DNA of 28,146 nt from a virus: the IMG/VR virus record IMGVR_UViG_3300044834_000029, positions 1-28,146 of that record; one strand, written 5' to 3'. Positions within the stretch are counted from its first letter, which is position 1; each line of letters begins with the position of its first letter. The notes beneath the pieces are model-generated. The model worked only from the letters and a program-made list of their open reading frames with translations. It did no database searches and was not told the origin of the DNA. Below are positions 6,887 to 28,146 of the stretch, piece after piece. A program made the translations under genes and the position numbers.

Positions 6887-7359
6887 TACATCGCCTCCAT
6901 CGGAAAGCTGAACGCGGCGACGATGCGCGCCCGCCACCACTCACCCAAAGGGACCTCTGCGACCGGCGCGCTTTCGATCGCATGGATGAACGTGCTGGCT
7001 GTCGCCAGGACGCCGCAATGCTTGGCGATGCGCCCGCGCCGCACTCGAAAGACCAGGACGTCGGCCGGCTGCATGTCGCTGGGCGCGACCTCCAGCAGAT
7101 GCTTCCGGCAGACCGCGAGCAGCGTCTCTTCGCCTGTGATGTCACCCCAATCGGCGCTGTAGGCCGGCAACGGCTCCGGCTCCGGTCCGATCAGGTCGCG
7201 CCAGACACCCCGCAGCAAGCCAAGGCAATCGCAGCCCGCGCCTCTGCAGGACGCTTGATGGTGATAAGGCGTGCCGATCCATGCGCGCGCTCCTTCAACG
7301 ATGCGCGCGCGATGGCGGCCGGCCGCGTCAAGCTCAGTTGAAGAACGATCCGCCATCAT
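6886..7359 (-). CDS. NlpC/P60 family tail peptidase (GTA gp14-like)
   Basis: The 157-residue protein has the NlpC/P60 cysteine peptidase signature: the catalytic cysteine in CDCLGL (Cys45), the second catalytic residue His114 in IAKHCGVL, and a likely third polar residue near His126. Such proteins in gene transfer agents and siphophage tails cleave peptidoglycan peptides during DNA entry. The start could be either ATG of an adjacent pair (7359 or 7356); both lie within the last 26 bases of the upstream hub gene, so the genes overlap and are probably translationally coupled. Downstream it shares a TAATG junction with the large tip protein. It fits the fixed order DUF2460, DUF2163, NlpC/P60, TIM barrel. 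Confidence 0.9.
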   Translation of the reverse strand: MMADRSSTELDAAGRHRARIVEGARAWIGTPYHHQASCRGAGCDCLGLLRGVWRDLIGPEPEPLPAYSADWGDITGEETLLAVCRKHLLEVAPSDMQPADVLVFRVRRGRIAKHCGVLATASTFIHAIESAPVAEVPLGEWWRARIVAAFSFPMEAM

Positions 7360-8227: not shown

Positions 8228-8856
8228 AGCCGCAGCTCCTTCAACGGAATGGAGGGCATGTCGCCGATCGGACCGCGGATCGCCGTCTGGTCGAGCTTTC
8301 CGTCGAAGCGCACGGGCACATGGAACTGCCCGCCCCATTTCAGGTCCGCGCCTACTGCCGGCGCGGCGCCGAAGGTCACGTTTCCGGTATTGTTGTTGAC
8401 CGTAAAGCCCGCACCGATCGGCGCGCCGTTGACGGCGATCAGGGTCGTGCCGAAGGGCTTGCTGATGCGGCGGTCGAATATGTTGGCCGCGACTTTGTAG
8501 CGCTTGACCAGTGGAAAGACCGTCGTCACGCCATCGCCAGTGCCAAGCTTCTGATCGGTGGCCGCTGGCGTCTGTTGCGGCGGGCCGGAGCGATAGTCGG
8601 TCCAATCCATCAGCCGGAAGCCGCGCGTCGGCCCCATCGCGACATGATAAAGCTCAAGCACTTCATAGAGCTCGTCATGGGTGCGCACGCCGTAGCGCGC
8701 GTCATAGCTGCGCAGCGGCGCGCTCCACGGCGTGTTGCGCTCTTCATGGCCGGACGATTTTTCGACAATTTTGACCAGCCACTCGGGGCCGCCGGTCGAG
8801 CCCCAGGAAATGTGGATCGGGAAGATCACATCGTCCATGAAGGAAACGTCGGGCAT
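8224..8856 (-). CDS. DUF2460 distal tail protein (GTA gp12-like)
   Basis: The 210-residue protein matches the DUF2460/TIGR02217 family, the distal tail protein that forms the ring under the tail tube in gene-transfer-agent-like tails. Visible family features are a YDARYGVRTHDELYEV segment, a GFRLMDWTDY motif and a C-terminal GGQFHVPVRFD strand. The true start is the ATG at 8856, which overlaps the tape-measure stop by one base (TGATG); the much longer open frame that continues upstream is a shadow of the tape-measure gene. The gene ends in a GTGA overlap with the hub gene. Confidence 0.92.
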   Translation of the reverse strand: MPDVSFMDDVIFPIHISWGSTGGPEWLVKIVEKSSGHEERNTPWSAPLRSYDARYGVRTHDELYEVLELYHVAMGPTRGFRLMDWTDYRSGPPQQTPAATDQKLGTGDGVTTVFPLVKRYKVAANIFDRRISKPFGTTLIAVNGAPIGAGFTVNNNTGNVTFGAAPAVGADLKWGGQFHVPVRFDGKLDQTAIRGPIGDMPSIPLKELRL

Positions 8857-11336
8857 CAGGAAAATCTCCCCGCCCGAGCCAGCATGCGGCGCGCGCCGCG
8901 CATCATGGTGACACGATCCTCGGCGAAGGCGCGCGGGTTGGGCGTTTGGATATGGAAGTGAGTGACCTGGTTGCCGCCGGCGCGAGGCCGATCGTTGAAA
9001 GATGACGACGTTGCGGGCTCCGTCCAAGGCGGCGCGGACAGCGGGCCGGCATAGCCGCCTTGGCTGTAGCCGGGCAGCCGGTTGTCGTTGATCGCTTTGA
9101 GCAGCGAGAAATGCTTTGCCGTGGCTTCGGCATTGACGACGAACTCGTGGCCATGCACCACGCCGGCAATCGCGCGCCGGTCGATCGCACCGGTGAAGCC
9201 GCCTTTTTCGTAGAGCCTTCCGAAGCCAAGGCCTGTACCGCCCGAGACCGGGCTTTTGCCGCCGAACAGTCCCTGCAGCAGCCCACCAAACAATCCGCCG
9301 CTGGCCTGTGTGCCGAACAGACCGGCGAACGAACCTTGCCCGGCCAAGGCTGCCTGCAACACCATCTTCCCGATGCTGCCGGAGAGCTGCAGTATCGCCT
9401 GCGACGCGGTCTGCGCGCCGGTCGCCCAGCCATACAAGGCATCGGTGAACTGCCCGCTGACGGCATCGGCCGCCATCTTGGCGTTGCGGTATCGCTCGAC
9501 CGCCGCGGTGGCCTCGCCGAAGGCCTGCGCTTCGCCGCGGATCGCCGCCTGCTGTTGCGGCGACAGCGCGATGCCGGAGGCCTTGGCGCGCGCAAGTTGC
9601 TCTTGCTCGGCGCGGTAGGCGGCGGCGCTGCCGGCGCTCATGCCGAAGGTCTCGGCTTCGATGCGCGCGGCTTCGGTCTGCTGCTTGATGCCTTCGACCG
9701 CGCCGCGGGTGAATTGTGCGGACAGCGAGGCATTGACGCGCGCTTCGATCGCGGCGCCGGCGGCCTTCTCCGCTTCGGTGACGCCGCCGGTGGCGGAGAT
9801 CAGCGCCTGCTCGCGCGCGATGAACTTCTGTTGTGCCGCCTCGCTCAGTCCGTAGAGCTGCGCTTGCCGATCGAGCGCGATGTTCTGCTTGGCGATCGCG
9901 TCCGCCTGCGCCTGCGACAAAGGATTGGAAACCGTGACCTGGGGCCGCGCGGGCGCTGGGTAGAAGCCGGACAAATCCTGCTGGAGGGGCTGGCCCTGGC
10001 CGGCGATCAGTTGGTTGACGCCGGCGCTGTAGGGATTGGGGCCTGGAATCCCCCGTGCCACCGGGGCCGCGGGACTGAGGAAAGTCAGCCCGGAAGGCAG
10101 GCCAAGCGGGGCGACCGCGTTGTTGCGCGCCTCGATCACGCCCTGGCCGGCGGCGCGGTTGCGGTTGTAGCGCTCCCACGCGTCGGCGGCGGAATTGATG
10201 TAGCCCGTGATGCTGCTGAAGAAGTCCTTCAGGCCGGTCGTTTCATTGACGCCTTTGCCGCCGGTTTCAAACAGACGCTCGGCGGCGTTGCCGACACGGC
10301 CGAAGGCCGCCGCGGTGGTGTCCGCCGCATCGGCCGTTGAGCCGCCGAGCTGCGCGGCCGTGATCTTCAGCAGCGCATTCTGGAATTCGATCTGCTTGCC
10401 GCTGCGGAAAAGATTTTCAAGAAACTTTTGCTGGACCGGATCGATGCGGAGGCCGGCCTCGCGCAGCGCGTCCAGCCCATCGACCGGGTTTGTCAGCGCG
10501 CGGCCGAAGGCCTGCGCCCCGCGGGCGAGATCTGTGAAGCCGGTATTGGCGAGGTCTTGCGATTGCCGCAGCGCCTCTGCAAACACCCGGCCGGACACGT
10601 CGCGGAATTTCAGCAGCTCGACTTGCGCGGCGCGGATGTCTGTCAGGTTCTGCGTGCCCGCACCGCCGAGCTGGCCGGTGAGTCCTTCCAGGCTCTTCGG
10701 CGTCTGGCCGGAAGCGCCGCCGGTCAGCCGCAGCGCGTTCCCCACCCGCGCCTGGTTCATTTCGAGCTGCGCATAGGCGGTCGCGGCCTTCAGCGCGGCC
10801 GCCGCGACCAAGCCAAGCACGGCGACGCCGGCGATCAGGCCGATGCCCATGCGGTTCGTGCCCTGCAGCACCATGTTGGTCTGCGCGATCATGCCGCCGA
10901 GCGGGCCGCCGGTAAGCGCGGCGGCGTTGGCCAGATCGCGCAGCGCGGCTTTGTGCGTGAGCGCGCCGCGCGCCGCGCGCTCTTGCTTGTCGCGCAGGTC
11001 CACATTGCCGGCGGCCAGCTTGGCGATCGCCTGGCCTTCGGCCGAGGAGGCCGAGACGCCGGCGGCGCGCAGCGCGTTATGCACCTCGCGGTCTTTGCTG
11101 TTGCGCTTGAGCTGATCGGACTCGAATTTCAGCTGGTCGACCACGGTCCCGGTCGCCTTTGCCTGGCGGTTGAGGGACCCGACCTCGCGGTCGAGCTCCG
11201 CCTGCAAGCCTTTCAGGATGGTTTGCGTGCGGCCGGCCGCGCCGCCGACATCGTCGATGCCGCGCGCGGTGCTTTTTAGCTCCTTGACGGCGACCTCGCC
11301 ATTGGCGCCGATCTCGATGAAAAGCCGGAGCGTCAT
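8856..11336 (-). CDS. Tail tape measure protein
   Basis: The 826-residue protein is the longest helical protein in the tail block, with Ala/Gln-rich coiled-coil stretches, a hydrophobic central segment near residues 150-190 (IGLIAGVAVLGLVAAAALK) and a Gly-rich C-terminal part. This is the usual composition of a tape measure protein, which sets the length of the flexible tail and is ejected before the DNA. At roughly 1.5 angstrom per residue the tail would be about 120 nm. It begins in an ATGA overlap with the end of the frameshifted GT chaperone, the conserved neighbour arrangement in siphophages, and is followed at once by the distal tail gene. Confidence 0.92.
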   Translation of the reverse strand: MTLRLFIEIGANGEVAVKELKSTARGIDDVGGAAGRTQTILKGLQAELDREVGSLNRQAKATGTVVDQLKFESDQLKRNSKDREVHNALRAAGVSASSAEGQAIAKLAAGNVDLRDKQERAARGALTHKAALRDLANAAALTGGPLGGMIAQTNMVLQGTNRMGIGLIAGVAVLGLVAAAALKAATAYAQLEMNQARVGNALRLTGGASGQTPKSLEGLTGQLGGAGTQNLTDIRAAQVELLKFRDVSGRVFAEALRQSQDLANTGFTDLARGAQAFGRALTNPVDGLDALREAGLRIDPVQQKFLENLFRSGKQIEFQNALLKITAAQLGGSTADAADTTAAAFGRVGNAAERLFETGGKGVNETTGLKDFFSSITGYINSAADAWERYNRNRAAGQGVIEARNNAVAPLGLPSGLTFLSPAAPVARGIPGPNPYSAGVNQLIAGQGQPLQQDLSGFYPAPARPQVTVSNPLSQAQADAIAKQNIALDRQAQLYGLSEAAQQKFIAREQALISATGGVTEAEKAAGAAIEARVNASLSAQFTRGAVEGIKQQTEAARIEAETFGMSAGSAAAYRAEQEQLARAKASGIALSPQQQAAIRGEAQAFGEATAAVERYRNAKMAADAVSGQFTDALYGWATGAQTASQAILQLSGSIGKMVLQAALAGQGSFAGLFGTQASGGLFGGLLQGLFGGKSPVSGGTGLGFGRLYEKGGFTGAIDRRAIAGVVHGHEFVVNAEATAKHFSLLKAINDNRLPGYSQGGYAGPLSAPPWTEPATSSSFNDRPRAGGNQVTHFHIQTPNPRAFAEDRVTMMRGARRMLARAGRFS

Positions 11337-12054
11337 GCGTCAGTCTCGTTGAGCGCGTCGCGCGCCGCCCGTTCCATCACCTGCAGGCCGGCCCAGAGCT
11401 CCGGCGTGACCGTCATGCCCAAGGCATCGAGCCCCGCGCGCACGCCGGCATAGTCCAGGCCGACAAAGCGAATGCGCGTTGGCACCATGCCGCCGCCGAT
11501 CGGCGCGGTACGCCATTGCGTGTCGACGGCGAAAAACGCTTCGACGATCGCGACGTGCTCCGGCCATAACCCCTCGTCCCCCTCGGCGCTCTGCTGCAGC
11601 ATTTCGCGGATAGCGGCGACCGACGCGTCATCGAAACCAAAGCGGCGCGCGTCGCGCTCCGCATCAGAATCTTCACCGGGCGAGATCGTCGGGCCGCCGC
11701 GCGCCCAGAACCGCGCGGCCCACTTCAGTTTCCCGCTTTGGCTTTCGTGACCGCCGCGAGATAGCCTTCCATCAGCGCGCGCCGCGCATATGGCAGATCC
11801 AGCACCTGGTCGCGCACGGCGTCGCTATAGGTGATCGGCGCGCCGGCTTCGTCGGCGATGTCGTCTAGCTTCACCACCGCTTGCTGGAGGAATGCGAGCG
11901 TGCCCTCCGGCGAGCTCAGATCGTGATTTGCGACGGATGAGGCCGCGATTACTTTGTAGGTGGCCTTGAGCGTCTCCTTGCGGTAGCCGCCATCAGACGG
12001 AACCATCACGTCCACCGAGTGGGTGAAGGTGGGTTCGGACAGGACTTTAAACAT
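11333..12054 (-). CDS. Tail assembly chaperone GT made by -1 frameshift (DUF1799-type C-terminus)
   Basis: This is the longer of two products from one start. Ribosomes that slip back one base on GGGAAAC (minus strand, 11734-11728) avoid the TGA at 11725-11727 and continue for 131 codons, beginning LKWAARFWARGGPTISPGE, down to a stop at 11333-11335 that overlaps the tape-measure start. The extension contains a DUF1799-like sequence. No start codon with a ribosome-binding site lies at the head of the extension; the first ATG in the frame (11602) would remove its conserved beginning. In lambda-like tails the G and GT proteins coat the tape measure and recruit tail-tube subunits. The fused length is about 240 residues. 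Confidence 0.85.
11725..12054 (-). CDS. Tail assembly chaperone G (unshifted product)
   Basis: The 109-residue product begins at an ATG preceded by AAAGGAG and ends in ...KAKAGN directly on the frameshift heptamer. Its place between the tail tube gene and the tape measure gene, and the frameshift at its last sense codon, identify it as the G-type chaperone even though sequence conservation in this family is low. It is expected to bind the tape measure protein during tail assembly and not to be part of the finished particle. Most ribosomes should stop here, giving an excess of G over GT. Confidence 0.87.
   Translation of the reverse strand: MFKVLSEPTFTHSVDVMVPSDGGYRKETLKATYKVIAASSVANHDLSSPEGTLAFLQQAVVKLDDIADEAGAPITYSDAVRDQVLDLPYARRALMEGYLAAVTKAKAGN
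11728..11734 (-). promoter_or_regulatory. Programmed -1 ribosomal frameshift site GGGAAAC
   Basis: On the minus strand the last zero-frame codons are GCG GGA AAC TGA, so the heptamer G GGA AAC has the classical X XXY YYZ form in the correct phase and is followed immediately by the stop. The -1 frame is open for 131 codons and matches the expected downstream partner. Lambda uses the related GGGAAAG at the same place. The downstream sequence is GC-rich, with GCGCG-type self-complementary stretches within 40 bases that could stimulate slippage. Confidence 0.85.
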
Positions 12055-12082
12055 CGGCTTCAGGCTCCTTTGAAAAAAGCAC

Positions 12083-13024
12083 TCAAGTGAGCGCGATGGA
12101 AAACTGATCGTTGCCCGCCGCGGACGGCAAAGGCGTCAGGCTCAGCGGCCACTCCTTGACGCCCTGGTTGTTCTGCAGCCCGGTCGGCCGCTTCACCTGG
12201 CACGTGGGCGCGGCGATGGTGGCGATGTTGCCGGCCACGGTGCCGTGCACGATGGTGACGGGGACCAAAGTCTGTGCATTGGCCAGCGCGAAGGGATCGA
12301 TGGTGGTGAGCGGCGTCGCTTCGACGACGACGTCGAGCGTCTCCGCGCGATCCACAATAAGGATTTCCTCCCGGCCGATCAGCAGCCGCGGCTGGACGTC
12401 GCAACCGAGGTTGAGGCTGTAGCTGCGCATCACCAGAGACACGCCGTTGACTGTGAAGGACGGGGTGTTGGCGTGGGTCACCAGCTTGGGCTTGATGAAG
12501 CCGGCCAACGTGGGCGTGGCGGGAGCCGCTTCGGCCGGCAGGGTAAACAGTCCCATGAAGGTCCAGCGGATGCGCGGCACGCCCTGCGCGGTGAGGCCGA
12601 CAACGCCCCCGCCGCGCGCGCCTTTGAAAATGTATCTGGTCGAGCCGATCCAGAAGTAGAAAGATAGGCTCTCCATCGTGCCGCTGATCGGGTTGTAGGT
12701 CACCGAGGTGTCGGCGACGGTCACCTCGGCCATGCCGCAGGCGCGCGCGAGCGGTCCCCATTTCGGCGCCACGCCGGCCGTACCGCTGCCGGCGATCTCG
12801 GTGTCGAAGGCAATCACCGTGCGCAAAGCGGTCGGAATCGTGGCCTGCGCGCCGGGATAGGGGAACTCCAGGTCGCGCGAAACGTCGTCACCATCCATCG
12901 GCGTGAGCTCGACATTGGTGGCGAGGATGGCGTTGGCGACGCCGGTCGGCGTCGCATCAACACCATAGGTGCCTTCGATCTTGGCCAGCAGGACTTTGGA
13001 TTTCCATTTGATCGAGTTTGGCAT
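12083..13024 (-). CDS. Tail tube (major tail) protein, siphovirus type
   Basis: The 313-residue protein lies after the tail terminator gene and a short spacer gene and before the chaperone pair, which is the position of the major tail tube protein. Its N-terminus (KVLLAKIEGTYGVDATPTG) and mainly beta composition fit the tube proteins of B3/D3112-like transposable siphophages. Mu would have a contractile sheath gene L followed by tube gene M here; only one gene is present and it is not sheath-like, so the tail should be non-contractile. A T-run follows the stop on the minus strand, but the preceding stem is only about three base pairs. Confidence 0.8.
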   Translation of the reverse strand: MPNSIKWKSKVLLAKIEGTYGVDATPTGVANAILATNVELTPMDGDDVSRDLEFPYPGAQATIPTALRTVIAFDTEIAGSGTAGVAPKWGPLARACGMAEVTVADTSVTYNPISGTMESLSFYFWIGSTRYIFKGARGGGVVGLTAQGVPRIRWTFMGLFTLPAEAAPATPTLAGFIKPKLVTHANTPSFTVNGVSLVMRSYSLNLGCDVQPRLLIGREEILIVDRAETLDVVVEATPLTTIDPFALANAQTLVPVTIVHGTVAGNIATIAAPTCQVKRPTGLQNNQGVKEWPLSLTPLPSAAGNDQFSIALT

Positions 13025-13027
13025 GCG

Positions 13028-13201
13028 TCACTTCTCCTTCGCGGCGCGCTTTGGCGATCCGCTCTCGCCGGACTGCGGCATGGGCTCGGTGAGGGTCGGC
13101 ACGAATTGTCCCTCTTCGTATTCCGCCTCGATACGCTTGAGCGCGCCGCTCTTGTCGCGGATGTAGCTGCCGCCTTCGCTGGGCATCGGTGTTTTGGTCA
13201 T
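13028..13201 (-). CDS. Small tail-region protein (57 residues; slot of Mu gp38/DUF2635)
   Basis: This short frame runs from an ATG at 13201 overlapping the stop of the upstream gene (ATGA) to a TGA three bases before the tail tube start. The product begins MTKTPMPSEGG and contains YIRDKSGALKRIE, and is rich in charged residues, Pro and Gly. In Mu and relatives a similarly small protein (DUF2635 in many) lies between the gp37-like gene and the first tail gene, so the position is conserved, although I can only call the resemblance weak. Tight coupling on both sides supports real translation. Its role is unknown. Confidence 0.7.
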   Translation of the reverse strand: MTKTPMPSEGGSYIRDKSGALKRIEAEYEEGQFVPTLTEPMPQSGESGSPKRAAKEK

Positions 13202-13638
13202 CGTGTGATCCTCAGTTGATCATCGAGCGCGAAATCCAGTTGATAGAAAACCGTGCCGGCCACGACCGACACCAGCCGGCCGCGCAGCAGAACGAAGACG
13301 CCGATCGCCTCGGCCGGCGCCCAGCCGGCGAGCGCGGCGATCACCGCATCTTTCAGCGTGTCGATCTTGACAAGGGCGCGCTTGGCCTTTGGGTCGCCGG
13401 CGGATTCCGCCACCAGGACCACGCCGATCACTTCGCGGAAGCTCTGGCGATAAAGGCCAGCGGCAGCGTCGGGCTCGCGGCCGTCGCAGCCGAGCGGGAT
13501 CACGAAGCCCGCCGGCAGCCGTTGCGGCAGCGCATTCTGTTGCACCAGCGCCGAGAGTTCAGCCACTTCCTCCAGCACGCCGGTGAGCGCGGCGACCTGG
13601 GCCGAGATCTGTGTCTTCACGGTTTCGACAAGGGTCAT
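13198..13638 (-). CDS. Mu gp37-like tail terminator / tail completion protein
   Basis: The 146-residue product begins with a helical segment (MTLVETVKTQISAQVAALTG) and ends with strands including VFYQLDFALDDQLR, a pattern seen in gp37-like proteins of transposable phages that close the tail tube at the head end. The gene sits between the gpG-like virion morphogenesis gene and the small tail gene, as in the Mu order 36-G-37-38. Its start overlaps the previous stop as ATGA and its stop overlaps the next start in the same way. The assignment rests more on order than on a diagnostic motif. Confidence 0.7.
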   Translation of the reverse strand: MTLVETVKTQISAQVAALTGVLEEVAELSALVQQNALPQRLPAGFVIPLGCDGREPDAAAGLYRQSFREVIGVVLVAESAGDPKAKRALVKIDTLKDAVIAALAGWAPAEAIGVFVLLRGRLVSVVAGTVFYQLDFALDDQLRITR

Positions 13639-14189
13639 GGCCGGGCCTCGCCGGCGAGCCAGTCTTCGCCGATGCGGATGATCTCGCGGCCGTCGTCATC
13701 ATCGAGGCCGAGGAACGGCCGCGCCGGGATTTTGATGGTATGGGCCGGGACGTTCACGTCTTGCGCAAAATTGGAGCTGCGCTTCCTTGCGAACTTGGTG
13801 CCGAGCTCGCCGGTGCGTTTGTCGCTGCGGAAATAAATCGTCTGCTTGCGCGCCGCTTTCTGGATCGTCCCGCCGAGCTGGTGAATGGCGGCATAGAGAA
13901 CGTTGGTGCCGACTTCGACGCCGCTGTCGGACGCGACGAAAGTGATCGACTGCATCAGCCGCGCGGTCTTGATCAAGGTCTTGCCGCCTTCGGCCAGTGC
14001 GCGCAGTGACGGTGGCCAGGCCGACCCGTCCGGTCCATGGCCTTCCTCGAAGCGGCGCTGCGTCGAAGTCACCAGCGACAGCCCGATATTTTCGAACATG
14101 CCGCGCGGATGCTCCACCCGCGACAAGATCGCGTCGAGCTCGCGCAGCGCCTCGTCTTTGCCGGAGATCTCCAGGCGGACGCCGCTCAT
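13635..14189 (-). CDS. G: Phage virion morphogenesis protein (Mu gpG-like)
   Basis: The 184-residue protein matches the phage virion morphogenesis family (Mu gpG, Pfam PF05069). Visible hallmarks are an N-terminal ISGKDEALRELDAIL helix, the conserved FEEGHGPDGSAWPPSL motif, the central VGTNVLYAAIHQLGGTI motif and a C-terminal IPARPFLGL. Members act in head-tail joining or tail completion. The gene overlaps the DUF1320 gene upstream (TGATG) and the gp37-like gene downstream (ATGA). Length and motif order are normal. Confidence 0.93.
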   Translation of the reverse strand: MSGVRLEISGKDEALRELDAILSRVEHPRGMFENIGLSLVTSTQRRFEEGHGPDGSAWPPSLRALAEGGKTLIKTARLMQSITFVASDSGVEVGTNVLYAAIHQLGGTIQKAARKQTIYFRSDKRTGELGTKFARKRSSNFAQDVNVPAHTIKIPARPFLGLDDDDGREIIRIGEDWLAGEARP

Positions 14190-14617
14190 CAGACGAAGCC
14201 CTTCAGGTTGTCTTCGGTGAAGGGCCGCTCCCGGTCATTGGTGCGCACGCCGGTCGCGCCGCTGCCGGCCGGCTCGGTGCCGGCGACGTCGAGACGGACG
14301 GCGCCGGAAGCGATCTCGCGCAAGCTGCGCATCGCGTCCTCGTAATCCTGGCGGATTTTTTCCGAGGCGACGTTGCGGTGGAGCTTGTAGACCGCGATGG
14401 ACAGCGCCAGGTCGCGCAACAGCGGCGGCGTGCTGGCGAGCGGCAGCGCGTAGCGACCTTTCAAATAGCCGTCGATCAGCGCATCGGTATCGGCGAGCGC
14501 GCGGTCGACCACGGCCGGATCGATCGCGCCGGCCGGCGGCTCGGCTCGGTCGGTGAGGTCGAGCAGCATCGACTGGCCGTAGCGCTCGACCAGCTGGGCT
14601 TGCGTGGCGTAGCTCAC
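14189..14617 (-). CDS. DUF1320 family head-tail connector protein (Mu gp36-like)
   Basis: The 142-residue protein opens with SYATQAQLVERYGQ and has the DUF1320 pattern: an ALADTDALIDGYLKGRY helix, then a long helical segment with SIAVYKLHR. Proteins of this type act as head-completion adaptors between portal and tail. The start is a GTG that overlaps the stop of the ACP-like gene (GTGA), so its translation is coupled to that unusual neighbour. In Mu, gene 36 directly follows gene 35; here the tRNA-like gene and the ACP-like gene have been inserted between the two. Confidence 0.92.
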   Translation of the reverse strand: MSYATQAQLVERYGQSMLLDLTDRAEPPAGAIDPAVVDRALADTDALIDGYLKGRYALPLASTPPLLRDLALSIAVYKLHRNVASEKIRQDYEDAMRSLREIASGAVRLDVAGTEPAGSGATGVRTNDRERPFTEDNLKGFV

Positions 14618-14856
14618 CGGCGCGCCTCCAGAAAGCGGATGATGTCGCCGGGCGTGGCGAAGGTCTCGATCGCGTCGTCGTTGATGTCGATGTTGAAGTC
14701 CTCTTCAAGCGCGACGATGATCTCGATGCGCTCCAGCGCATCGGCCCCGAGGTCTTCAAACAACAGCGCGTTCGGGTCGATGCTCTTGGCGTCGATGCAC
14801 AAGGTCTTGGCGATCGCCGCCTTGACTCGCTCCCCGATGCTGCGCGTTGCGTCCAT
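14614..14856 (-). CDS. Acyl carrier protein-like protein lacking the phosphopantetheine serine
   Basis: The 80-residue acidic protein has the length, four-helix pattern and signature of an acyl carrier protein: helix I (IGERVKAAIAKTL), a linker with DPNALLFEDLGAD, helix II (LERIEIIVALEEDF), and a C-terminal TPGDIIRFLE helix. In functional carrier proteins the motif is DSL, with serine carrying 4'-phosphopantetheine; here it is DAL, with Ala40 in the serine position, so it cannot be charged in the usual way. It lies inside the structural operon and is coupled to the DUF1320 gene by a GTGA overlap. Its role could be structural, or it could mimic the host carrier protein; both are inference. Confidence 0.88.
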   Translation of the reverse strand: MDATRSIGERVKAAIAKTLCIDAKSIDPNALLFEDLGADALERIEIIVALEEDFNIDINDDAIETFATPGDIIRFLEARR

Positions 14857-14880
14857 GTCCACTCGCCATCGTTTTGAAAG

Positions 14881-14929
14881 CCCGCCGCGGCTTCCTGGCA
14901 CCGCGGCGGGGTGCGGCGCTTGCCGCCGC
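14881..14929 (-). terminator. Two adjacent GC-rich hairpins between the tRNA-like gene and the ACP-like gene
   Basis: A perfect 10-bp inverted repeat (14881-14890 with 14901-14910, 10-base loop) and a 6-bp one (14913-14918 with 14924-14929, 5-base loop) follow each other. In the direction of transcription the larger hairpin is followed by CTTTC and not by a true T-run, so termination would be partial at best. They may instead delimit or protect the RNA segment carrying the tRNA-like structure. Confidence 0.4.
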
Positions 14930-14984
14930 TTACCGGAACTCCGCGCGCCGGGGATGCGGAGCAACCGGATCGCTTGTCTTGGTT

Positions 14985-15055
14985 GCGGGGGGCTGGGTTC
15001 GAACCAGCGACCTTCGGATTATGAGTCCGACGCTCTACCGACTGCGCTACCCCGC
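14985..15055 (-). tRNA. tRNA-Met(CAT)-like gene, degenerate acceptor stem
   Basis: The minus strand folds as a tRNA: anticodon stem TCGGA/TCCGA with loop CTCATAA (anticodon CAT, T33 present), T arm GCTGG-TTCGAAC-CCAGC perfect and canonical, and D arm GCGC-loop-GAGC with one G-A mismatch. The acceptor pairs for six base pairs (GCGGGG with CCCCGC), but the 5' side is one base short, leaving one C unpaired. No CCA is encoded. The anticodon stem lacks the GGG/CCC pairs of initiators, so it would be an elongator-type Met or an Ile2-type tRNA. Its 5' end overlaps the last nine bases of the gp35-like gene, whose TAG stop supplies the conserved TA of the tRNA. Possibly a decaying or tRNA-mimic gene. 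Confidence 0.75.
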
Positions 15056-15451
15056 CGCTTTAGGTCCTGTCGGCACGCGCGTGATCACCACGAGCTCGCG
15101 ATCGCCCTTGATCGCGGTGACCTGGTCGTCGGTGAGCTCGCTCAATGGAATGACCGCCTCCACGCCGCGCGTGAAGAAGCGGCCCGCACGCCAGCGGCCA
15201 CGCTCCGGCTTTGCCCGCACCACGAGCGATGCGTTTGCCAGGGCTTCCGGCGGAATTCCGGGCGGCAACGGATCTGCGAGGTCGACCGTGGCCGGGGCGT
15301 TGGGGGCGGCGGCAGATTCCGCCGCCCCCGCGTCGTTGGCTTCGCTCACGGTCATATCGCTGCCTGGCTTATCCGCACCGGCATTGGCGGTGAGCGCCGG
15401 AGCTGTTTCCGGCTGAGGCGCTTCCTTGTCGGGCTTTGGCTTTTTGCTCAC
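15047..15451 (-). CDS. Mu gp35-like (HI1506-type) head protein
   Basis: The 134-residue protein follows the major capsid gene by eight bases, the position of Mu gene 35. It starts at a GTG with GAGG upstream. The first 70 residues are low in complexity and rich in Ala, Pro, Asp and Glu; the C-terminal 65 residues form the conserved-looking part (LVVRAKPERGRWRAGRFFTRG, LTDDQVTAIKGDRELVV), similar to short Mu gp35 homologues, which contain the pattern of a modified arginine-rich strand followed by LTxxQ. The function in this family is not established. The stop codon lies within the tRNA-like gene. Confidence 0.72.
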   Translation of the reverse strand: MSKKPKPDKEAPQPETAPALTANAGADKPGSDMTVSEANDAGAAESAAAPNAPATVDLADPLPPGIPPEALANASLVVRAKPERGRWRAGRFFTRGVEAVIPLSELTDDQVTAIKGDRELVVITRVPTGPKAAG

Positions 15452-15459
15452 TGATCACC

Positions 15460-16353
15460 TCACGCGAGCCAGGGGCAGACCAGCAACTCGGCGGTGCCCT
15501 TGTAGACGTTGGTGGCGCCGGCGGCGTCGCGTTCTGCATTGAGGATTTCAAGCGCGTTGCCCTCCAGCGTCGGCGGCACGACCAGCAAGCGGGGCTGGAT
15601 GTTGAGGGGCACGCCGTAATCGCCCTTCATGCTCATCAGTGACTCGCGCGCGGTCTTGTAGTGCGCCTTGTCGAGGGTCTGCTTGGAGCCCCAGGCCATC
15701 TGCCAGAAGCCGAAGCCAGCGTTGCCGCGGCCGTCCCAGCCGTACTGGAATTCCTTCTGCCGGAAGACGTTGTCGTCATCGGGCCGATCGAGCGAAACGA
15801 ACTCTCCCTTCTTGCGCAACTGCCAGATAAGCGGCTTGAGAACGCGGCCGACATCCAGCAGGAACCAGGACGTGCCCGCGCCGCCGTCCGTGTTCGCCAC
15901 CGTGACCGGAGCGCCTGCGGCATTGAGCACGGGATGGTCGGTGTCGAAGAAGTTCTGGTCGTCATAGCCCGCGGTGGTGAAGCCGGTTTTCAGGAGCGCC
16001 CACACCAAGGTGTCCGGCCAGTAACCGACCGACTCGCCGAATGCCTGAAACAGTGGGGCGTAGATACCGAGCGTGTCGTCTTCGATGTCGTCGCGATCGA
16101 CACCGATCGTGCTCTCGAAAGATTTGTTCTTGATCGCGTAGTCGTGCTCCATCAGGTTCTGCACGACCCGCGGTCCGATCCATTCGCGCACGCCCGGCAT
16201 CTTCCCGAGCCAGCCGTATTTTTCTTCTTTGGTGGTCGACGGCACGACCGTGGCGACACGCGCATAGAGCGAGGTCGTCGCCTGCAGCTGGTTCTGGAAG
16301 TGCGTCTTGAAGCCGACGCGGAGATTATCGAGGTTGGTCCGATTGATGATCAT
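15460..16353 (-). CDS. T: Major capsid protein, Mu gpT-like
   Basis: The 297-residue protein is a clear Mu-like major head subunit (gpT, PF10124). It opens with the typical LDNLRVGFKTHFQNQL segment and contains EEKYGWLGKMPGVREWIG, the YAIKNKSFESTIGVDRDDIEDD motif and a late NIQPRLLVVPPTLEGNA strand, all family features. It folds as an HK97-type capsid subunit and builds the icosahedral head. The normal length and the absence of a long N-terminal delta domain fit the use of a separate scaffold, which is encoded within the protease gene upstream. Confidence 0.96.
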   Translation of the reverse strand: MIINRTNLDNLRVGFKTHFQNQLQATTSLYARVATVVPSTTKEEKYGWLGKMPGVREWIGPRVVQNLMEHDYAIKNKSFESTIGVDRDDIEDDTLGIYAPLFQAFGESVGYWPDTLVWALLKTGFTTAGYDDQNFFDTDHPVLNAAGAPVTVANTDGGAGTSWFLLDVGRVLKPLIWQLRKKGEFVSLDRPDDDNVFRQKEFQYGWDGRGNAGFGFWQMAWGSKQTLDKAHYKTARESLMSMKGDYGVPLNIQPRLLVVPPTLEGNALEILNAERDAAGATNVYKGTAELLVCPWLA

Positions 16354-16386
16354 GAGAAGCGCTTCTCTCTCTGTAAGGCGCGGTTA

Positions 16387-17163
16387 TCAGTCGCGCTCGA
16401 TTTCGAAGATGGCGTTGGCGGCGGACGCGGTGGCGTTGGTGCCGCCGACCGTGAGCGATAGCTCGTCGCCCGGCGCGACGATGTTCAAGGCGGTCGGGTT
16501 GCAGGAGTCCTTGTCCCCGGCCGCCGAGCCCGCCTGGGTGATGATAATGACGCCGGTGGTGATGGCGGCGCCGTTGATCGCGCCGGTCAGCGTAGCGTCC
16601 CCGGTGGTGAGCACGCCTTCGATCACCGACCAAATTTTCACCACGCGACCGGCGTGGATCGAGATCTGGCGGTAAACGTTCGCGCCCACCAGGGTGGTCA
16701 CGCGCACCGGCACGAAGACACGGCGGTTGGCCTGGTAGGCCGCAAGCGAGGCGGGCGAGAAGAGAACGTAGACGCCAAGATCGTCGACATCGATAATGAT
16801 GCCGGCTACCGAGCGGGTGTTGCTGCCGCTGGTCTTGGCGACCGTCTGATCGTCGACCGCGTAGCAAATCCGGCCGCGGTCGGCGACGGTGATGGCGTCG
16901 CCGGCGGCCGAGTTGCCGACGCGGAAGATGCCTTCGCGCACCCGCACGGTGACATCGCCGTTGGCGCCGGCGGTATTGTCGACCTGCTGCTGGGCAATGC
17001 CCGCACCGATCAGGTTGACGCCAGTAGCGCCCGGCGTCGCGAAGCCGGCAGTGGTCATCAGGACGATCGCGCCGGCGAAAATCTTTTTGGCGGCGGCAAC
17101 GCCCATCACTTTGTCGTCGCCCGCGGAGCGCGGCGTATTCCGGTCGGAAGTCAGAGCACCCAT
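16387..17163 (-). CDS. Probable capsid decoration / structural cement protein
   Basis: The 258-residue protein lies between the protease/scaffold gene and the major capsid gene, the usual slot for a capsid decoration protein. It is predominantly beta, rich in Gly, Ala, Val and Thr, and seems to contain two parts: residues 1-140 resemble a small cement-protein fold, with KIFAGAIVLMTTAGFATPG and a run ending AGIIIDVDDLGVYVLFSP, and residues 145-258 form a second beta domain beginning VFVPVRVTTLVGANVYRQI. The ATG at 17163 has GGAG upstream. A GCGGCC-TCA-GGCCGC hairpin lies in the 54-base gap before it. I assign the role from position and composition. Confidence 0.7.
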   Translation of the reverse strand: MGALTSDRNTPRSAGDDKVMGVAAAKKIFAGAIVLMTTAGFATPGATGVNLIGAGIAQQQVDNTAGANGDVTVRVREGIFRVGNSAAGDAITVADRGRICYAVDDQTVAKTSGSNTRSVAGIIIDVDDLGVYVLFSPASLAAYQANRRVFVPVRVTTLVGANVYRQISIHAGRVVKIWSVIEGVLTTGDATLTGAINGAAITTGVIIITQAGSAAGDKDSCNPTALNIVAPGDELSLTVGGTNATASAANAIFEIERD

Positions 17164-17217
17164 GTCGTCTCTCCAAATTGCGGCCTCAGGCCGCGGGGGT
17201 TGTTCCTCAACGGCGCG

Positions 17218-17820
17218 TCAGGCCGCGGCGTCCTCCGCCTGCAAGGTCTTGGCGTAGTCCTCCGGCTTGACGCCGAGCACCGTCGCGGCTTGGAGCTGCT
17301 CGGCGTTGAGCGCAAGCTTGCCGTCCTTGTCTTTCGCCGGCGGCGTGATTTGCGCGCCGCTCGGTCCGACCATCGGCATGGCGTTGATCAGCGCCTCGGT
17401 GTTGGCGGGGTCAGCGGCATGCATTGCGAGGTAGCGGTCGCGCAGCGGCTTCACGCCAACGCGGCCGGCCTTGATCGCGCCGTCAACAAAAGCGGTGGCC
17501 TTGTCTTGCGCGCTGTTCTTCTGGATCGTTGCGAGCTGCTTGCCGAGGTCGACGATCTCGGCCTGCAGCGCCGCGACATCCTTGGCGTCGCCGGCGGCGA
17601 GCGTCGTCACCGCCGCCACGATCGCGGCCTGGTCGGCGTTGTCGTTCAGGCCGGCGGCCTGGGCGATCGGCGCCAGCGCGGTCTGCAGCGCGGCACCAGC
17701 CTTTGCTTTCTCGGCGGTCGCGGCGCTCACGACCGCGCTGACCGCCTGATAGATTTTGTCGGTATCTGAATCAGCATCGAGACCTAGAAGCGACCGAAGC
17801 TTGCTGAGCAGCTCTTCCAT
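17218..17820 (-). CDS. Z: Nested scaffold protein from an internal start (Mu gpZ-like)
   Basis: Within the protease gene an in-frame ATG at 17820 (Met159) is preceded by AGAGGAAAACCAA, a good ribosome-binding site at suitable spacing, exactly where the protease domain ends and the helical scaffold part (MEELLSKLRSLLGLDADSD) begins. Mu makes its scaffold gpZ from the 3' part of gene I in the same way. The 200-residue product would be the main internal scaffold, with the full-length form as a minor, protease-bearing species. Supported by motif and precedent, not proven. Confidence 0.75.
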   Translation of the reverse strand: MEELLSKLRSLLGLDADSDTDKIYQAVSAVVSAATAEKAKAGAALQTALAPIAQAAGLNDNADQAAIVAAVTTLAAGDAKDVAALQAEIVDLGKQLATIQKNSAQDKATAFVDGAIKAGRVGVKPLRDRYLAMHAADPANTEALINAMPMVGPSGAQITPPAKDKDGKLALNAEQLQAATVLGVKPEDYAKTLQAEDAAA

Positions 17821-18294
17821 TTGGTTTTCCTCTGCATGAAGCGCGGCCATGCCGCGCAGATTGGGTGTGTTGGTGAGCGACGCGCGTGGGATGCTGAGCA
17901 CGCGGCCATCTTTGGCGTGCATAATGACGGGCGAAATGCCGCGATAGGCGCGGTCGGCGAGCAGCTGCTTCCCGCTCTCGGTCCATTCGACTTTGCCGAA
18001 CAGTCCGGTTGCGCGCGCCTCCAGCCCGACGATCCAGCCGCGCGCCGGCGACGGCTCGCCCTTCGGCGCGGCAAGATCGGTGGAATGATTTTCGTCAATT
18101 GGCAGCATGCCGCCCGCCGCCTGCAAACTGTCGGTTGCGAGCTGCGCGGCATCGACTACGTGATAGGGGCCGCGGCCATCGACTGTCTGCACGACGCGGC
18201 CCGGCGGCAGCAGCATGATAAATTCAGGCGCCCCGCCTTCCGCGTTGAGCGCCTGTACCGCCGCTAAAGCTGCGCTTGCCTTAATCCCGGGCAT
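17218..18294 (-). CDS. I: Capsid maturation protease with C-terminal scaffold (Mu gpI-like)
   Basis: The 358-residue protein matches Mu-like prophage I protein (PF10123). The protease part (residues 1-155) contains LPIDENHSTDLAAPKGEPSPARGWI, with the His70 region and the AxGWI signature of the family, and LADRAYRGISPVI. From about residue 159 the protein is a long Ala/Gln/Glu-rich helix, the scaffold portion. I chose the ATG at 18294; upstream in-frame starts would translate the regulatory palindrome at 18330-18347. A 6-bp inverted repeat (18296-18310) abuts the start codon. The enzyme is expected to cleave the scaffold and itself during head maturation. It is the first gene of the capsid operon. 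Confidence 0.92.
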   Translation of the reverse strand: MPGIKASAALAAVQALNAEGGAPEFIMLLPPGRVVQTVDGRGPYHVVDAAQLATDSLQAAGGMLPIDENHSTDLAAPKGEPSPARGWIVGLEARATGLFGKVEWTESGKQLLADRAYRGISPVIMHAKDGRVLSIPRASLTNTPNLRGMAALHAEENQMEELLSKLRSLLGLDADSDTDKIYQAVSAVVSAATAEKAKAGAALQTALAPIAQAAGLNDNADQAAIVAAVTTLAAGDAKDVAALQAEIVDLGKQLATIQKNSAQDKATAFVDGAIKAGRVGVKPLRDRYLAMHAADPANTEALINAMPMVGPSGAQITPPAKDKDGKLALNAEQLQAATVLGVKPEDYAKTLQAEDAAA

Positions 18295-18326
18295 GCGGCG
18301 ACAATCGCCGTCAGCCCGCCGAGTCG

Positions 18327-18349
18327 TAACCCGGACAGCTGTCCGGGGC
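18327..18349. promoter_or_regulatory. Copy B of a 23-bp regulatory repeat with a perfect 18-bp palindrome
   Basis: The palindrome CCCGGACAGCTGTCCGGG occupies 18330-18347, flanked by TAA on one side and GC on the other; the full 23 bp recurs exactly at 26356-26378 and I find it nowhere else in the window. It lies 36 bases before the protease start, at the head of the capsid operon, and 40 bases before the divergent zinc-ribbon gene. In Mu the activator C binds dyad sites at PI, in front of gene I. On the minus strand the repeat is followed by TTACGAC, a poor -10 candidate. A hairpin role is less likely, because no T-run follows. Confidence 0.75.
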
Positions 18350-18386: not shown

Positions 18387-18794
18387 ATGTCGCACTCACC
18401 CACGCGCCGGAAACAGGCCGAATTTCTCGCCGAGCGGCGGCGCCGCCGCGAAGCGGCGCGGCAGGCGGTCATCGACCGGGCCGCCGCGCAGCTGCGGCCC
18501 ATCATCCCGATCTGGAACGCGCAAGCCGCGGGCGGGGAATTGTGGTTCTATCCGACGATCGGCGGCGCGGTCATCGCCGGCTTTCCGTTTCTCGACTTCT
18601 ATTGTCCAGGTTGCCTGCAATGCGGCACGGTCGATCTACGCCAGATCGACCGGCATCCCTCCGCTTCGCTGCAAAGCCTGATCCCGGCACTATCGTGCCG
18701 CCGGTGCACGCCGAATCCGCCCTTCGCCCAGCTGGCAGGGCTACGGCAACCACCGCCGCTGGTCTGGCCGCCGCCCGGCCAAGCGCCGCTTTAA
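18387..18794 (+). CDS. Zinc-ribbon-like moron protein on the opposite strand
   Basis: This 135-residue protein is read against all neighbouring phage genes. A basic helical N-terminus (SPTRRKQAEFLAERRRRREAA trimmed here to its character: very Arg-rich, residues 5-27) is followed by a conserved-looking core with LWFYPTIGG and a Cys73-x2-Cys76 and Cys104-x2-Cys107 pair, a likely zinc-binding site. From memory, similar short proteins recur in Bradyrhizobium-type genomes, without known function. I prefer the ATG at 18387; a TTG at 18351 is in frame but touches the palindrome flank. The gene is probably a moron, expressed independently of the lytic operons. A DNA- or RNA-binding role is inference from the basic helix and zinc site. 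Confidence 0.75.
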   Translation: MSHSPTRRKQAEFLAERRRRREAARQAVIDRAAAQLRPIIPIWNAQAAGGELWFYPTIGGAVIAGFPFLDFYCPGCLQCGTVDLRQIDRHPSASLQSLIPALSCRRCTPNPPFAQLAGLRQPPPLVWPPPGQAPL

Positions 18795-25035: not shown

Positions 25036-25965
25036 CTAGTGATTCCTCGACGGCGGCGGCGACCGCCGCGGCTTGCGCGCGGCGGGGACGTATTCCGCAT
25101 CATGGAAGCTGGCGACGATGCCGCCGTCGATCGCGGCTTTCGCCTTGCGGTTCTTGTAGGCGGCCCACAGCGCGTAGCCGACGCCAGCGACCGCGATCAG
25201 CGCGGCGATGGTGACCAGCAACAAGTAGACGTTGCGCGCCCAGGGCGAGGCGCCGATCAACGGCTTCAGCGTGTCGGTCGCGCCTTGAATGATGGCTGCC
25301 GCCCCGCCGCCGCCGCCCGCCGCGGCGGTGCCAACCTCCGGCGCGACCGGCGCCGCGACGATATCGCCGGCATAGGCCTTGGCGTCGCCGAGTTGCTCAT
25401 GCACGGGCACGGGCGCCGGGCCGACGGAGCCGGACGCCCAGGCCTGGCCGATGTCCTTGACGCTAACGACGCGCGCGGTCCAGCCTTTGCCGAAAGCATC
25501 GAAGGTCGAGAGGTTCTGCAACATGCCGAGCCGGCGCGCCAGCATGTCGGCGATCAGCGCGTCGTGGTCGGGGTGCTGCTCGATCGCGCCGAGCGTGCCT
25601 TCGCCCAGGTGCCCGTCGATATCGCCGTGATAGAGCCCGGCCGCCTGCAGCGCGCGCTGCAGCCATTTGGCCGATTGACCGGGGCCGGAATTGACCGCGC
25701 CGTCGAAGACGGCGAGATCGACGCCCGCCGGCAGCCGGTCGCCCTGGATGGCGTCCCAATACTGCGTGCGGTAAATCTCCCGCAGCTCCTCGTCGGTGAT
25801 CTTGCGCACGCTGCGCGGCTCAAGCCCCTTGGATCTGCGGTAGCCGTCGTACACCCGCTTGATGATGCCCTTGTTGGTTTCGCCGCCCGGGTCGCGCGGA
25901 TGATTGCTGTAGCCGCCTTCGTAGACGAGGACACGGTCGAGCGCTTTGCCGAAGTCTTCCCTCAT
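25036..25965 (-). CDS. GH108-type muramidase (endolysin) with a C-terminal membrane helix
   Basis: The 309-residue protein begins with the glycosyl hydrolase 108 domain (residues 5-90): VLVYEGGYSNHPRDPGGETNKG, with the catalytic Glu16 in EGGY, and later QYWDAIQGDRLPAGVDLAVFD. A peptidoglycan-binding-3-like part follows to about residue 165. After a Pro/Ala/Gly-rich linker there is one strong membrane helix near 246-270 (VYLLLVTIAALIAVAGVGYALWAAY) and a basic tail. Enzymes of this family are usually about 170-200 residues, so the C-terminal 120 residues are an addition. It has no N-terminal signal, and its start overlaps the stop of the holin-like gene (ATGA). Confidence 0.92.
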   Translation of the reverse strand: MREDFGKALDRVLVYEGGYSNHPRDPGGETNKGIIKRVYDGYRRSKGLEPRSVRKITDEELREIYRTQYWDAIQGDRLPAGVDLAVFDGAVNSGPGQSAKWLQRALQAAGLYHGDIDGHLGEGTLGAIEQHPDHDALIADMLARRLGMLQNLSTFDAFGKGWTARVVSVKDIGQAWASGSVGPAPVPVHEQLGDAKAYAGDIVAAPVAPEVGTAAAGGGGGAAAIIQGATDTLKPLIGASPWARNVYLLLVTIAALIAVAGVGYALWAAYKNRKAKAAIDGGIVASFHDAEYVPAARKPRRSPPPSRNH

Positions 25966-26297
25966 CGCCGGCGCGCCCCGACGTCAGCGCGCCGCTGCGG
26001 GCGCAGGGCGCGCAACAGAAAGCCGAGCAGCATCAGCGGCCATGCGATACCGCAGAGGATGGCGATGCCGAGGGTGTTGGTTTGCGAGACGCCGGGCACC
26101 TCCTCCTGCTTGGTCTCGACATAGATCAGCACGAAGGTACCAAAGGCCGCGAGCCCGTCGATCAGCGCCCAGGTCCAGAAGATGAAAGCGTCGGCGATGG
26201 GAAGGCGCAGCATGTCGCGCGAAAACGCGCCGCCCGGCGCGAGCGTCAAAAGCGCTGCGATCACAACGATCGCCAGCAGCCGTTTGCCGTGAAACAT
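25962..26297 (-). CDS. Holin-like membrane protein
   Basis: The 111-residue protein has three hydrophobic segments (about residues 5-25, 36-60 and 75-97) and a basic C-terminus (RPQRRADVGARRR), the layout of a class I holin. It is the first gene of the lysis and packaging operon and overlaps the muramidase start by four bases, which supports a lysis role. I do not recognise a named holin family in it. The first segment could alternatively be a cleaved signal peptide (APGGAFS). A purine-rich GAGGGGGA lies just before the ATG at 26297. Confidence 0.7.
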   Translation of the reverse strand: MFHGKRLLAIVVIAALLTLAPGGAFSRDMLRLPIADAFIFWTWALIDGLAAFGTFVLIYVETKQEEVPGVSQTNTLGIAILCGIAWPLMLLGFLLRALRPQRRADVGARRR

Positions 26298-26355
26298 TCC
26301 CCCTCGCGCATCCCCCGACGCACGAGCGAAAGCTAAATCCCGAATTGTCCCGATA

Positions 26356-26378
26356 TAACCCGGACAGCTGTCCGGGGC
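26356..26378. promoter_or_regulatory. Copy A of the 23-bp regulatory repeat with a perfect 18-bp palindrome
   Basis: This copy carries CCCGGACAGCTGTCCGGG at 26359-26376, identical to copy B over 23 bases. It lies between the 67-residue gene and the holin-like gene, 61 bases before that start, at the position of Plys in Mu. On the minus strand the palindrome is followed by TTATATC, a fair -10 element, and further on by GATTTAGCT. A Mor/C-type activator is encoded just upstream at 26601-27002 and is the obvious candidate to bind here. Confidence 0.78.
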
Positions 26379-26386
26379 GTGGCGAG

Positions 26387-26590
26387 CTACCGCTTACCGA
26401 ATTGGTAGCAGTCCATCATTTCGTCGGTGGTGACCTGTGACGTGCGGCCGAGGACGCGGATCGATTGAATGCGGCCGCCAACAGGCCGGAGCTTCCGCGC
26501 CGCCTCGGCCGAGGCGTGGCGAAAGGTCAGCGCATCGAGCTCCCACACACTCGTCTTTCCCAATGAGACACTCACGACCTCGAATCGCAT
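26387..26590 (-). CDS. Small unknown protein downstream of the Mor-like activator
   Basis: The 67-residue product starts at an ATG with AGGAG seven bases upstream; that AGGAG lies directly at the stop of the Mor-like gene, so the two are surely co-translated. The sequence is of mixed charge, with strands FEVVSVSLG and IQSIRVLGRTSQVTT, and no helix-turn-helix, so it is not a second C-type activator. The frame extends further upstream inside the Mor-like gene, but that part is a shadow. Function unknown. It occupies the place of Mu gene C, between mor and Plys. Confidence 0.72.
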   Translation of the reverse strand: MRFEVVSVSLGKTSVWELDALTFRHASAEAARKLRPVGGRIQSIRVLGRTSQVTTDEMMDCYQFGKR

Positions 26591-26600
26591 TTCACCGCTC

Positions 26601-27002
26601 CTAGAAAAGTCTGCCCTGCTTGTCGCCCTTGCCGCCACCGCGGTGGGCGCGCCGATGCCGGCGCACGGTGCGTCCGGTGACACGCACGTCCTTGGCGATT
26701 TCGCGCTCGGACTTTTTCGCCAGGTCGAGTTCGTGGATGCGCCTGGCGACGGCACGGCGCAACTGGGCATAGGCGCCGCCGCCGGCGATGGGGACGTCGA
26801 TCTCCTGGCCGCCGCCGTCCACCGCAAAATGCCGGCAGATCTGCTCGGCCTTGGCGCGGCCGACGCACTCCACCAGCCAGTGATCGTCCGCCACCGTCGC
26901 CGGGATGTAGACGCGCGAGCCGCCGACGCGCGCGGCGATATTGACCGCCGCCGGCTCGCCGACGAGCTGCGCGATCTCCGCCAGGATGCCGGGGAGGTTC
27001 AT
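26601..27002 (-). CDS. mor: Mor/C-family transcription activator
   Basis: The 133-residue protein matches the Mor transcription activator family (PF08765). An N-terminal dimerisation part contains VNIAARVGGSRVYIPAT near residues 20-36, as in Mu Mor and C, and the C-terminal helix-turn-helix is SEREIAKDVRVTGRTVRRHRR (residues 98-118, cited as the motif). The basic tail ends GKGDKQGRLF. In Mu, Mor turns on the middle promoter and its relative C turns on the late promoters. Here only one family member is visible, immediately before the late blocks, so it may do both jobs. Its ATG overlaps the previous stop (ATGA). Confidence 0.92.
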   Translation of the reverse strand: MNLPGILAEIAQLVGEPAAVNIAARVGGSRVYIPATVADDHWLVECVGRAKAEQICRHFAVDGGGQEIDVPIAGGGAYAQLRRAVARRIHELDLAKKSEREIAKDVRVTGRTVRRHRRAHRGGGKGDKQGRLF

Positions 27003-27981: not shown

Positions 27982-28146
27982 CGCTTCTTCTCCTCAGCGT
28001 CCAGTTTCTGCCGCAGCACGCGCGCGAAGCCCGAGCCGTAAGTCTTCTCGATGTCGGCGAGCCTGAATTCGCGCGAGAGCGGAAGCGCATCGCGCAGCTC
28101 GTCGAGCAGTTTCTCGATCGTGCTCACCGGCGGGGGGGGCGCCCCC
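27978..28146 (-). CDS. Small early protein, 5' end uncertain at the window edge
   Basis: The frame ends with a TGA at 27978-27980 in an ATGA overlap. A GTG at 28127 would give a 49-residue charged helical protein (STIEKLLDELRDALPLSREF, ...RQKLDAEEKKR), but the frame stays open to the window edge through a proline-rich stretch, so it may be the end of a longer gene. No ribosome-binding site is visible before the GTG. The last 20 bases are an almost pure run of G and C, and may be less reliable sequence. Confidence 0.5.
   Translation of the reverse strand, partial: GAPPPPVSTIEKLLDELRDALPLSREFRLADIEKTYGSGFARVLRQKLDAEEKKR

What the first reader, a model, noticed from the sequence alone, without database searches (positions are those of the whole stretch)
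18327..18349. Exact 23-bp repeat with an 18-bp perfect palindrome at the heads of two late operons
CCCGGACAGCTGTCCGGG plus shared flanks occurs exactly twice, at 18327-18349 before the protease/capsid operon and at 26356-26378 before the lysis operon. These match the places of PI and Plys in Mu, two of the promoters driven by activator C. A 23-base exact repeat 8 kb apart, only at operon heads, strongly suggests one regulator, most simply the Mor/C-like protein encoded next to copy A. Its symmetry is more extensive than that of the Mu sites, and the palindrome sits directly beside possible -10 elements (TTATATC, TTACGAC), which would also suit a repressor or a MerR-like twist mechanism.
Basis: partly seen in the sequence, partly recalled or inferred. 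Interest (0 to 1): 0.72.

Follow-up and report, generated by a model that had tools for sequence, protein, structure and literature searches.

The report
Paired operators of a phage late-gene activator
The repeated palindrome is almost certainly the DNA address read by this Mu-like phage's own late-gene switch protein; across many relatives the address changes in step with three amino acids of the protein that reads it.

Summary
TAACCCGGACAGCTGTCCGGGGC occurs exactly twice, at 18327-18349 (before the Mu-I-type protease) and 26356-26378 (before the lysis genes). Correction: the Mor/C-like gene (26601-27002, minus) lies next to the lysis copy, not the protease copy.

The interpretation (Mor/C-like activator) is strongly supported and sharpened; its MerR-like/abutting -10 alternative is not. 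In relatives gathered by protein alone, a 16-bp palindrome usually follows the mor stop codon and recurs 7-9 kb downstream (31/55 loci against 2/343 control anchors). Its sequence varies by lineage and follows the Mor recognition helix: of all Mor residues, R115 best predicts half-site positions 1-2, R111 positions 3-4, R114 position 5. On a tree of the N-terminal domain, operator position 2 follows residue 115 in 11 of 12 independent pairs, never the opposite way. A close relative keeps the protease promoter but has R114H and the matching C-to-A operator change.

Spacing matches Mu: operator centre about -44.5, a -10 at fixed distance, no -35. Best reading: the activator binds both sites and recruits host RNA polymerase to two late operons; the protease mRNA may be leaderless. 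Binding and activation were not tested.

The parts
18327..18349 (-). Operator copy A (23-bp repeat; 18-bp palindrome 18330-18347, 16-bp core CCGGACAGCTGTCCGG 18331-18346), head of protease/capsid operon
   Evidence: recurs upstream of the head-gene operon in relatives
18301..18306 (-). Predicted -10 hexamer GATTGT of the protease promoter (k=33-38 after operator centre)
   Evidence: identical GATTGT at the same distance from the right half-site in L125
17218..18294 (-). Mu-I-like head maturation protease; ATG at the predicted +1 (possible leaderless mRNA)
   Evidence: Pfam Mu-like_Pro 7.9e-55; PHROG 328; ATG at k=45
26356..26378 (-). Operator copy B (23-bp repeat; palindrome 26359-26376), head of lysis operon
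   Evidence: relatives have the site mostly 0-30 bp after the mor stop codon
26330..26335 (-). Predicted -10 hexamer TAGCTT of the lysis promoter (k=33-38)
25962..26297 (-). First gene of the lysis operon, 111-aa membrane-like protein (holin candidate, by eye), no family match
25036..25965 (-). Endolysin (glycosyl hydrolase 108)
   Evidence: Pfam 1.3e-27; PHROG 315
26601..27002 (-). Mor/C-like late activator, 133 aa; recognition helix G110-R111-T112-V113-R114-R115-H116
   Evidence: PHROG 836 1.9e-23; Pfam Mor 1.7e-4, below cut-off; model pLDDT 81.6 with C-terminal helix pair
26390..26591 (-). Small ORF between mor and copy B, no family match

Best explanation
The two copies are operators of the phage's own Mor/C-like activator (26601-27002). 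A dimer binds the 16-bp palindrome CCGGACA-NN-TGTCCGG. Residue 115 reads half-site positions 1-2, residue 111 positions 3-4 and residue 114 position 5. Bound at about -44.5 it stands in for the missing -35 element and recruits or activates host RNA polymerase at a -10 located 33-38 bases downstream of the operator centre (GATTGT for the protease/head operon, TAGCTT for the lysis operon). One protein thus switches on both late operons. The protease mRNA is predicted to begin at the A of its ATG. Shown computationally: site recurrence, residue-base covariation, -10 spacing. Inferred: dimer binding, activation, start sites.
For: (1) Protein-only relatives: a palindrome pair, one just after mor and one at least 3 kb downstream, scores >=26 in 31/55 loci against 2/343 control anchors, with no sequence assumed. 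(2) Covariation: sites chosen without regard to the code (best palindrome within 60 bp of the mor stop); R115 with position 2 = G, p 1.7e-11; R114 with position 5 = C, p 5.5e-13. On an N-terminal-domain tree operator position 2 follows residue 115 in 11 of 12 independent pairs, 0 opposite, while the cross-control (115 against position 5) shows 0 of 12 following. Scan of all protein columns: recognition-helix residues 110-115 rank first for positions 1-6. (3) Orthologous promoter in L125: H at 114 goes with TGTCA in place of TGTCC, while flanks, -10 GATTGT and ATG are kept. (4) Geometry: the xA...W hexamer peaks at k=33 in 29/50 non-redundant sites, at most 5 at any other k from 17 to 59; both window copies fit. 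Mu Mor: 16-bp dyad centred at -43.5 replacing the -35 (PMC4390567, PMC4287176). (5) The cultured phage POA1180, not used to derive the code, carries the predicted half-site TGTCAGG right after its mor.
Against: No binding or transcription data. Fisher tests ignore relatedness; on starred branches alone only 3 independent pairs remain for residue 115 (2.9 concordant on average), so the 12-pair test uses weakly supported branches; 114/position 5 gives only 4.8 of 7 pairs. 60 of 159 Mor relatives show no good palindrome within 60 bp, among them L169, the closest by identity (60%), where no predicted site was found within 10 kb. L144/L153 have mixed half-sites and L233 breaks the position-5 rule. 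Spacer length is 1 or 3 rather than 2 in POA1180 and L125. Of four more distant phages, three show no 16-bp palindrome near mor and one only an unrelated one at +101. Two residue calls (L208, L218) were corrected by hand from a second alignment.
Confidence: 0.92

Rival explanations
1. The palindrome is an operator for a different phage or host regulator (for example the lysogeny repressor) that silences late operons, with Mor acting elsewhere.
For: Perfect GC-rich palindromes are typical repressor operators; a repressor could use the same two heads (sequence).
Against: Operator bases covary with Mor recognition-helix residues, which rank first among all protein columns for positions 1-6; the site follows mor in most lineages; position -44.5 upstream of the -10 suits activation better than occlusion of the start.
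Confidence: 0.05
2. The palindrome works as RNA: an intrinsic terminator or hairpin at the end of the preceding transcript.
For: A 7-bp GC stem could form; one relative (L090, second site at locus position 9234) has a 32-bp palindrome followed by CTTGCTTTT.
Against: No T-run follows either window copy and the terminator scan reports none there; half-site letters are conserved or change with the protein rather than as free compensatory pairs; spacing to the -10 is fixed.
Confidence: 0.02
3. MerR-like twist mechanism: the palindrome lies in the spacer between -35 and a directly abutting -10 (TTATATC/TTACGAC).
For: AT-rich bases follow both copies.
Against: Those bases are not conserved: AT fraction 0.31/0.17/0.30 at k=10-12 in 54 lysis-side sites, most relatives having GGCG there; the conserved -10 is at k=33-38. 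No sigma-70-type promoter was detected.
Confidence: 0.01

Closest known systems
Phage Mu Mor and its middle promoter Pm (PMC4390567, PMC4287176)
   Same: Mor/C-family protein; 16-bp dyad centred at -43.5 (here about -44.5); -10 present, -35 absent.
   Different: Mu dyad is two 5-bp repeats around a 6-bp G/C-rich spacer; here symmetry extends into the spacer and positions 1-2 are read; Mu uses Mor for middle genes and a second protein, C, for late genes.
Phage Mu C protein and Plys/PI/PP/Pmom (PMC4461284)
   Same: Late operons for lysis and head genes under one activator; C gene directly precedes the lysis genes.
   Different: Mu has four C-dependent promoters whose C sites and promoter elements differ; here two identical perfect palindromes and no further copy in the 28-kb record.
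Ochrobactrum phage POA1180 GP51 (KX669658)
   Same: Mor-like gene followed by a palindrome and the endolysin gene.
   Different: Operator CCTGACA-C-TGTCAGG with a 1-bp spacer, matching its Y114 helix; no study of its regulation turned up in the library searched here.

Membership tests
Mor/C transcription activator family | Homologous protein with N-terminal Mor domain and C-terminal HTH | tested here: met
   PHROG 836 over residues 2-133, E 1.9e-23; Pfam Mor E 1.7e-4 but 22.0 bits against a cut-off of 24.9
Mor/C transcription activator family | Fold of Mu Mor (PDB 1RR7) | tested here: inconclusive
   1RR7 among Foldseek hits over 121 columns, 23% identity, but E 1.2; a monomer model cannot show the dimer
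Mor/C transcription activator family | Target promoter just downstream of the activator gene, before late genes | tested here: met
   copy B lies between mor and the lysis operon; same in most relatives; Mu C-lys order
Mor/C-dependent promoters | Dyad centred near -43.5, -10 present, no -35 | tested here: met
   conserved -10 at k=33-38; no sigma-70 promoter found; start sites themselves not mapped
Mor/C-dependent promoters | Activator binds as a dimer and is required for transcription | not testable with these tools
   needs footprinting and reporter assays
MerR-type spacer-twisting promoters | Palindrome within the -35/-10 spacer, directly beside the -10 | tested here: not met
   abutting AT-rich bases not conserved; -10 is 33-38 bases from the centre
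Intrinsic terminator | Stem followed by T-run | tested here: not met
   none reported at either copy

The most novel reading that the evidence does not exclude
The single-activator Mor/C relatives of Mu-like phages, mostly of Alphaproteobacteria, obey a readable protein-DNA recognition code: R115 gives G at half-site position 2, other residues mostly T; R114 gives C at position 5, E gives G, aromatic/H mostly A; R111 gives TC at positions 3-4. This supplies many natural activator-operator pairs with different specificities, some driving leaderless lysis or protease mRNAs. I found no report of such a code in the library searched.
Probability: 0.8. Interest if true: 0.72.

Novelty: new variant of a known kind. 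Interest (0 to 1): 0.64.

Why it matters
Mor/C proteins are known almost only from Mu, where the dyads are weak and hard to read. Here the operators are near-perfect, paired and lineage-specific, so specificity can be read from sequence, late regulons can be annotated in uncultured phages, and the residue-base contacts proposed here can be tested by single substitutions. The pairs are also candidates for mutually independent activator-promoter parts.

Tried and rejected
Exact-word protein search with the window Mor alone found no relative in IMG/VR; an alignment of closer sequences did. The 16-sequence alignment was too diverse to seed a scan. The predicted TGTCA site was looked for within 10 kb of mor in L169 and not found. 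Mu itself was examined: no 16-bp palindrome of this kind follows mor or C, so the code was not tested on Mu. Four distant phages (B23, YPCBV-1, QH16, HXX_Dennis) gave no clear operator. L004, which holds the same 18-mer upstream of a Mor-like ORF, may be chance: no second copy was seen in its stretch. No further full copy in the window: the 4 other matches at 3 mismatches are within chance (6 in all; shuffles reach 6). MerR-like twist, terminator and repressor readings were considered and set aside as above.

Full report
Observation. The window is a 28,146-bp IMG/VR virus record whose structural genes run on the minus strand. TAACCCGGACAGCTGTCCGGGGC occurs at 18327-18349 and 26356-26378. The 18-bp palindrome has no other match at up to 3 mismatches; shuffled sequence gives 0.07. 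Copy A is upstream of a Mu-I-like protease (Pfam Mu-like_Pro 7.9e-55). Copy B is upstream of the lysis genes, with a glycosyl hydrolase 108 endolysin.

The same site elsewhere. The exact 18-mer is in two other IMG/VR records. In L003 it lies between a Mor-like gene and a lysis gene that looks like an amidase (by eye), and a second related site lies 7.2 kb on. In the loci with a Mor-like ORF the site typically lies within about 30 bp after the mor stop, often with a second site about 8 kb downstream. As that scan presupposed the sequence, relatives were then gathered by protein only.

Unbiased test. For each Mor locus with enough DNA downstream, the best pair of similar 16-bp palindromes was sought, one within 450 bp of the mor stop and its partner at least 3 kb downstream, with no sequence assumed. 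31 of 55 loci score 26 or more, against 2 of 343 control anchors placed 2-9 kb upstream in the same DNA. A minority of those 55 loci came from the palindrome scan; most came from the protein search. The palindromes found differ by lineage: GGACA-NN-TGTCC as in the window, GGAAC-NN-GTTCC, GGAAAATTTTCC and CTGACA-NN-TGTCAG among them.

Recognition code. Aligning the Mor C-terminal helix with the operators shows that residue changes track base changes. With 159 Mor proteins, 99 of which have a palindrome (at least 6 of 7 pairs) within -12 to +60 of the stop, R115 goes with G at half-site position 2 (60/11/3/24, Fisher 1.7e-11) and R114 with C at position 5 (43/8/6/41, 5.5e-13). These p-values ignore shared ancestry. 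On a tree built from the N-terminal domain only, restricted to 47 perfect palindromes, operator position 2 follows residue 115 in 11 of 12 independent pairs and never goes the other way; position 5 follows residue 114 in 4.8 of 7; residue 115 against position 5, a cross-control, follows in 0 of 12 with 3 opposite. Many branches are weakly supported: on starred branches only 3 pairs for 115 remain (2.9 concordant on average). A scan of every protein column against every operator position puts R115 first for positions 1 and 2, R111 for 3 and 4, R114 for 5 and G110 for 6. Two helix alignments (L208, L218) were corrected by hand from the MAFFT alignment or the plain sequence.

An orthologous comparison. 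L125 has a Mor 55% identical to the window's with H at 114. Its protease promoter, 7.8 kb after mor, aligns with copy A: GGGTTACGA, the GATTGT -10 and the ATG are kept and the protease is 57% identical, while the operator reads GCTGACACCGTGTCAGG in place of CCGGACAGCTGTCCGG, the change at position 5 that the code predicts. The spacer is one base longer. The cultured phage POA1180 (Y114, R115), not used to derive the code, has CCTGACACTGTCAGG directly after mor.

Promoter geometry. In 50 non-redundant sites oriented by transcription, a hexamer of the form xA...W starts at k=33 after the palindrome centre in 29, against at most 5 at any other k from 17 to 59. Copy A gives GATTGT (18301-18306) and copy B TAGCTT (26330-26335), both at exactly k=33-38. 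Counting that hexamer as -12 to -7 puts the operator centre at -44.5. In Mu, Mor binds a 16-bp dyad centred at -43.5 that replaces the -35 element (PMC4390567, PMC4287176). No sigma-70-type promoter and no terminator is found at the copies. In 23 of the 50 sites an ATG stands at k=44-48, that is between -1 and +4, opening an ORF of at least 50 aa in 21; copy A is one of them (protease ATG at k=45). Leaderless mRNA is therefore predicted, not shown. Copy B has its lysis ATG 26 bases further on.

Mechanism. The best-supported account is that the Mor/C-like dimer binds both palindromes and turns on the head/protease and lysis operons together. Recurrence, covariation and geometry are computed results; binding, dimerisation, activation and start sites are inferred by analogy with Mu.

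Limits. 60 of 159 Mor relatives lack a good palindrome within 60 bp, including L169, the closest by identity. L144, L153 and L233 break parts of the code. Four distant phages show no clear operator, and Mu's own sites do not fit this pattern. The fold search listed Mu Mor (1RR7) over 121 columns but without significance, so family membership rests on sequence (PHROG 836), gene position and promoter layout. The literature library searched holds open-licence papers only; a code of this kind may be reported elsewhere.

Noticed in passing
18389-18794 (+): A 135-aa ORF (MSHSPTRRKQ...FPFLDFYCPGC...) runs against the late operon between the protease and the gp30-like head gene, divergent from copy A; no Pfam match and no plasmid match. 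Possibly a cargo gene.
   Followed up: partly
14614-14964 (-): ORF within the structural gene block whose C-terminal part reads like an acyl carrier protein (LLFEDLGADALERIEIIVALEEDFNIDI); by eye only, no family search run.
   Followed up: no
449-1255 (-): D12-class N6-adenine DNA methyltransferase (Pfam 1.2e-22) at the far end of the record, downstream of the tail genes.
   Followed up: no
1813-18294 (-): Mu-like protease, gp30-like head protein and portal-like genes are joined to a tail block with a 1325-aa ORF of phage-tail-component type (2963-6940) rather than a Mu-like contractile tail; by eye only.
   Followed up: no
28120-28146: The record ends in a G-run followed by CGCCCCC, an odd end that may be an assembly artefact.
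   Followed up: no
L004:7832-8509 and 2788-3513: A record with two Mor-like ORFs, one with the same 18-mer directly upstream; possible autoregulation or chance.
   Followed up: partly
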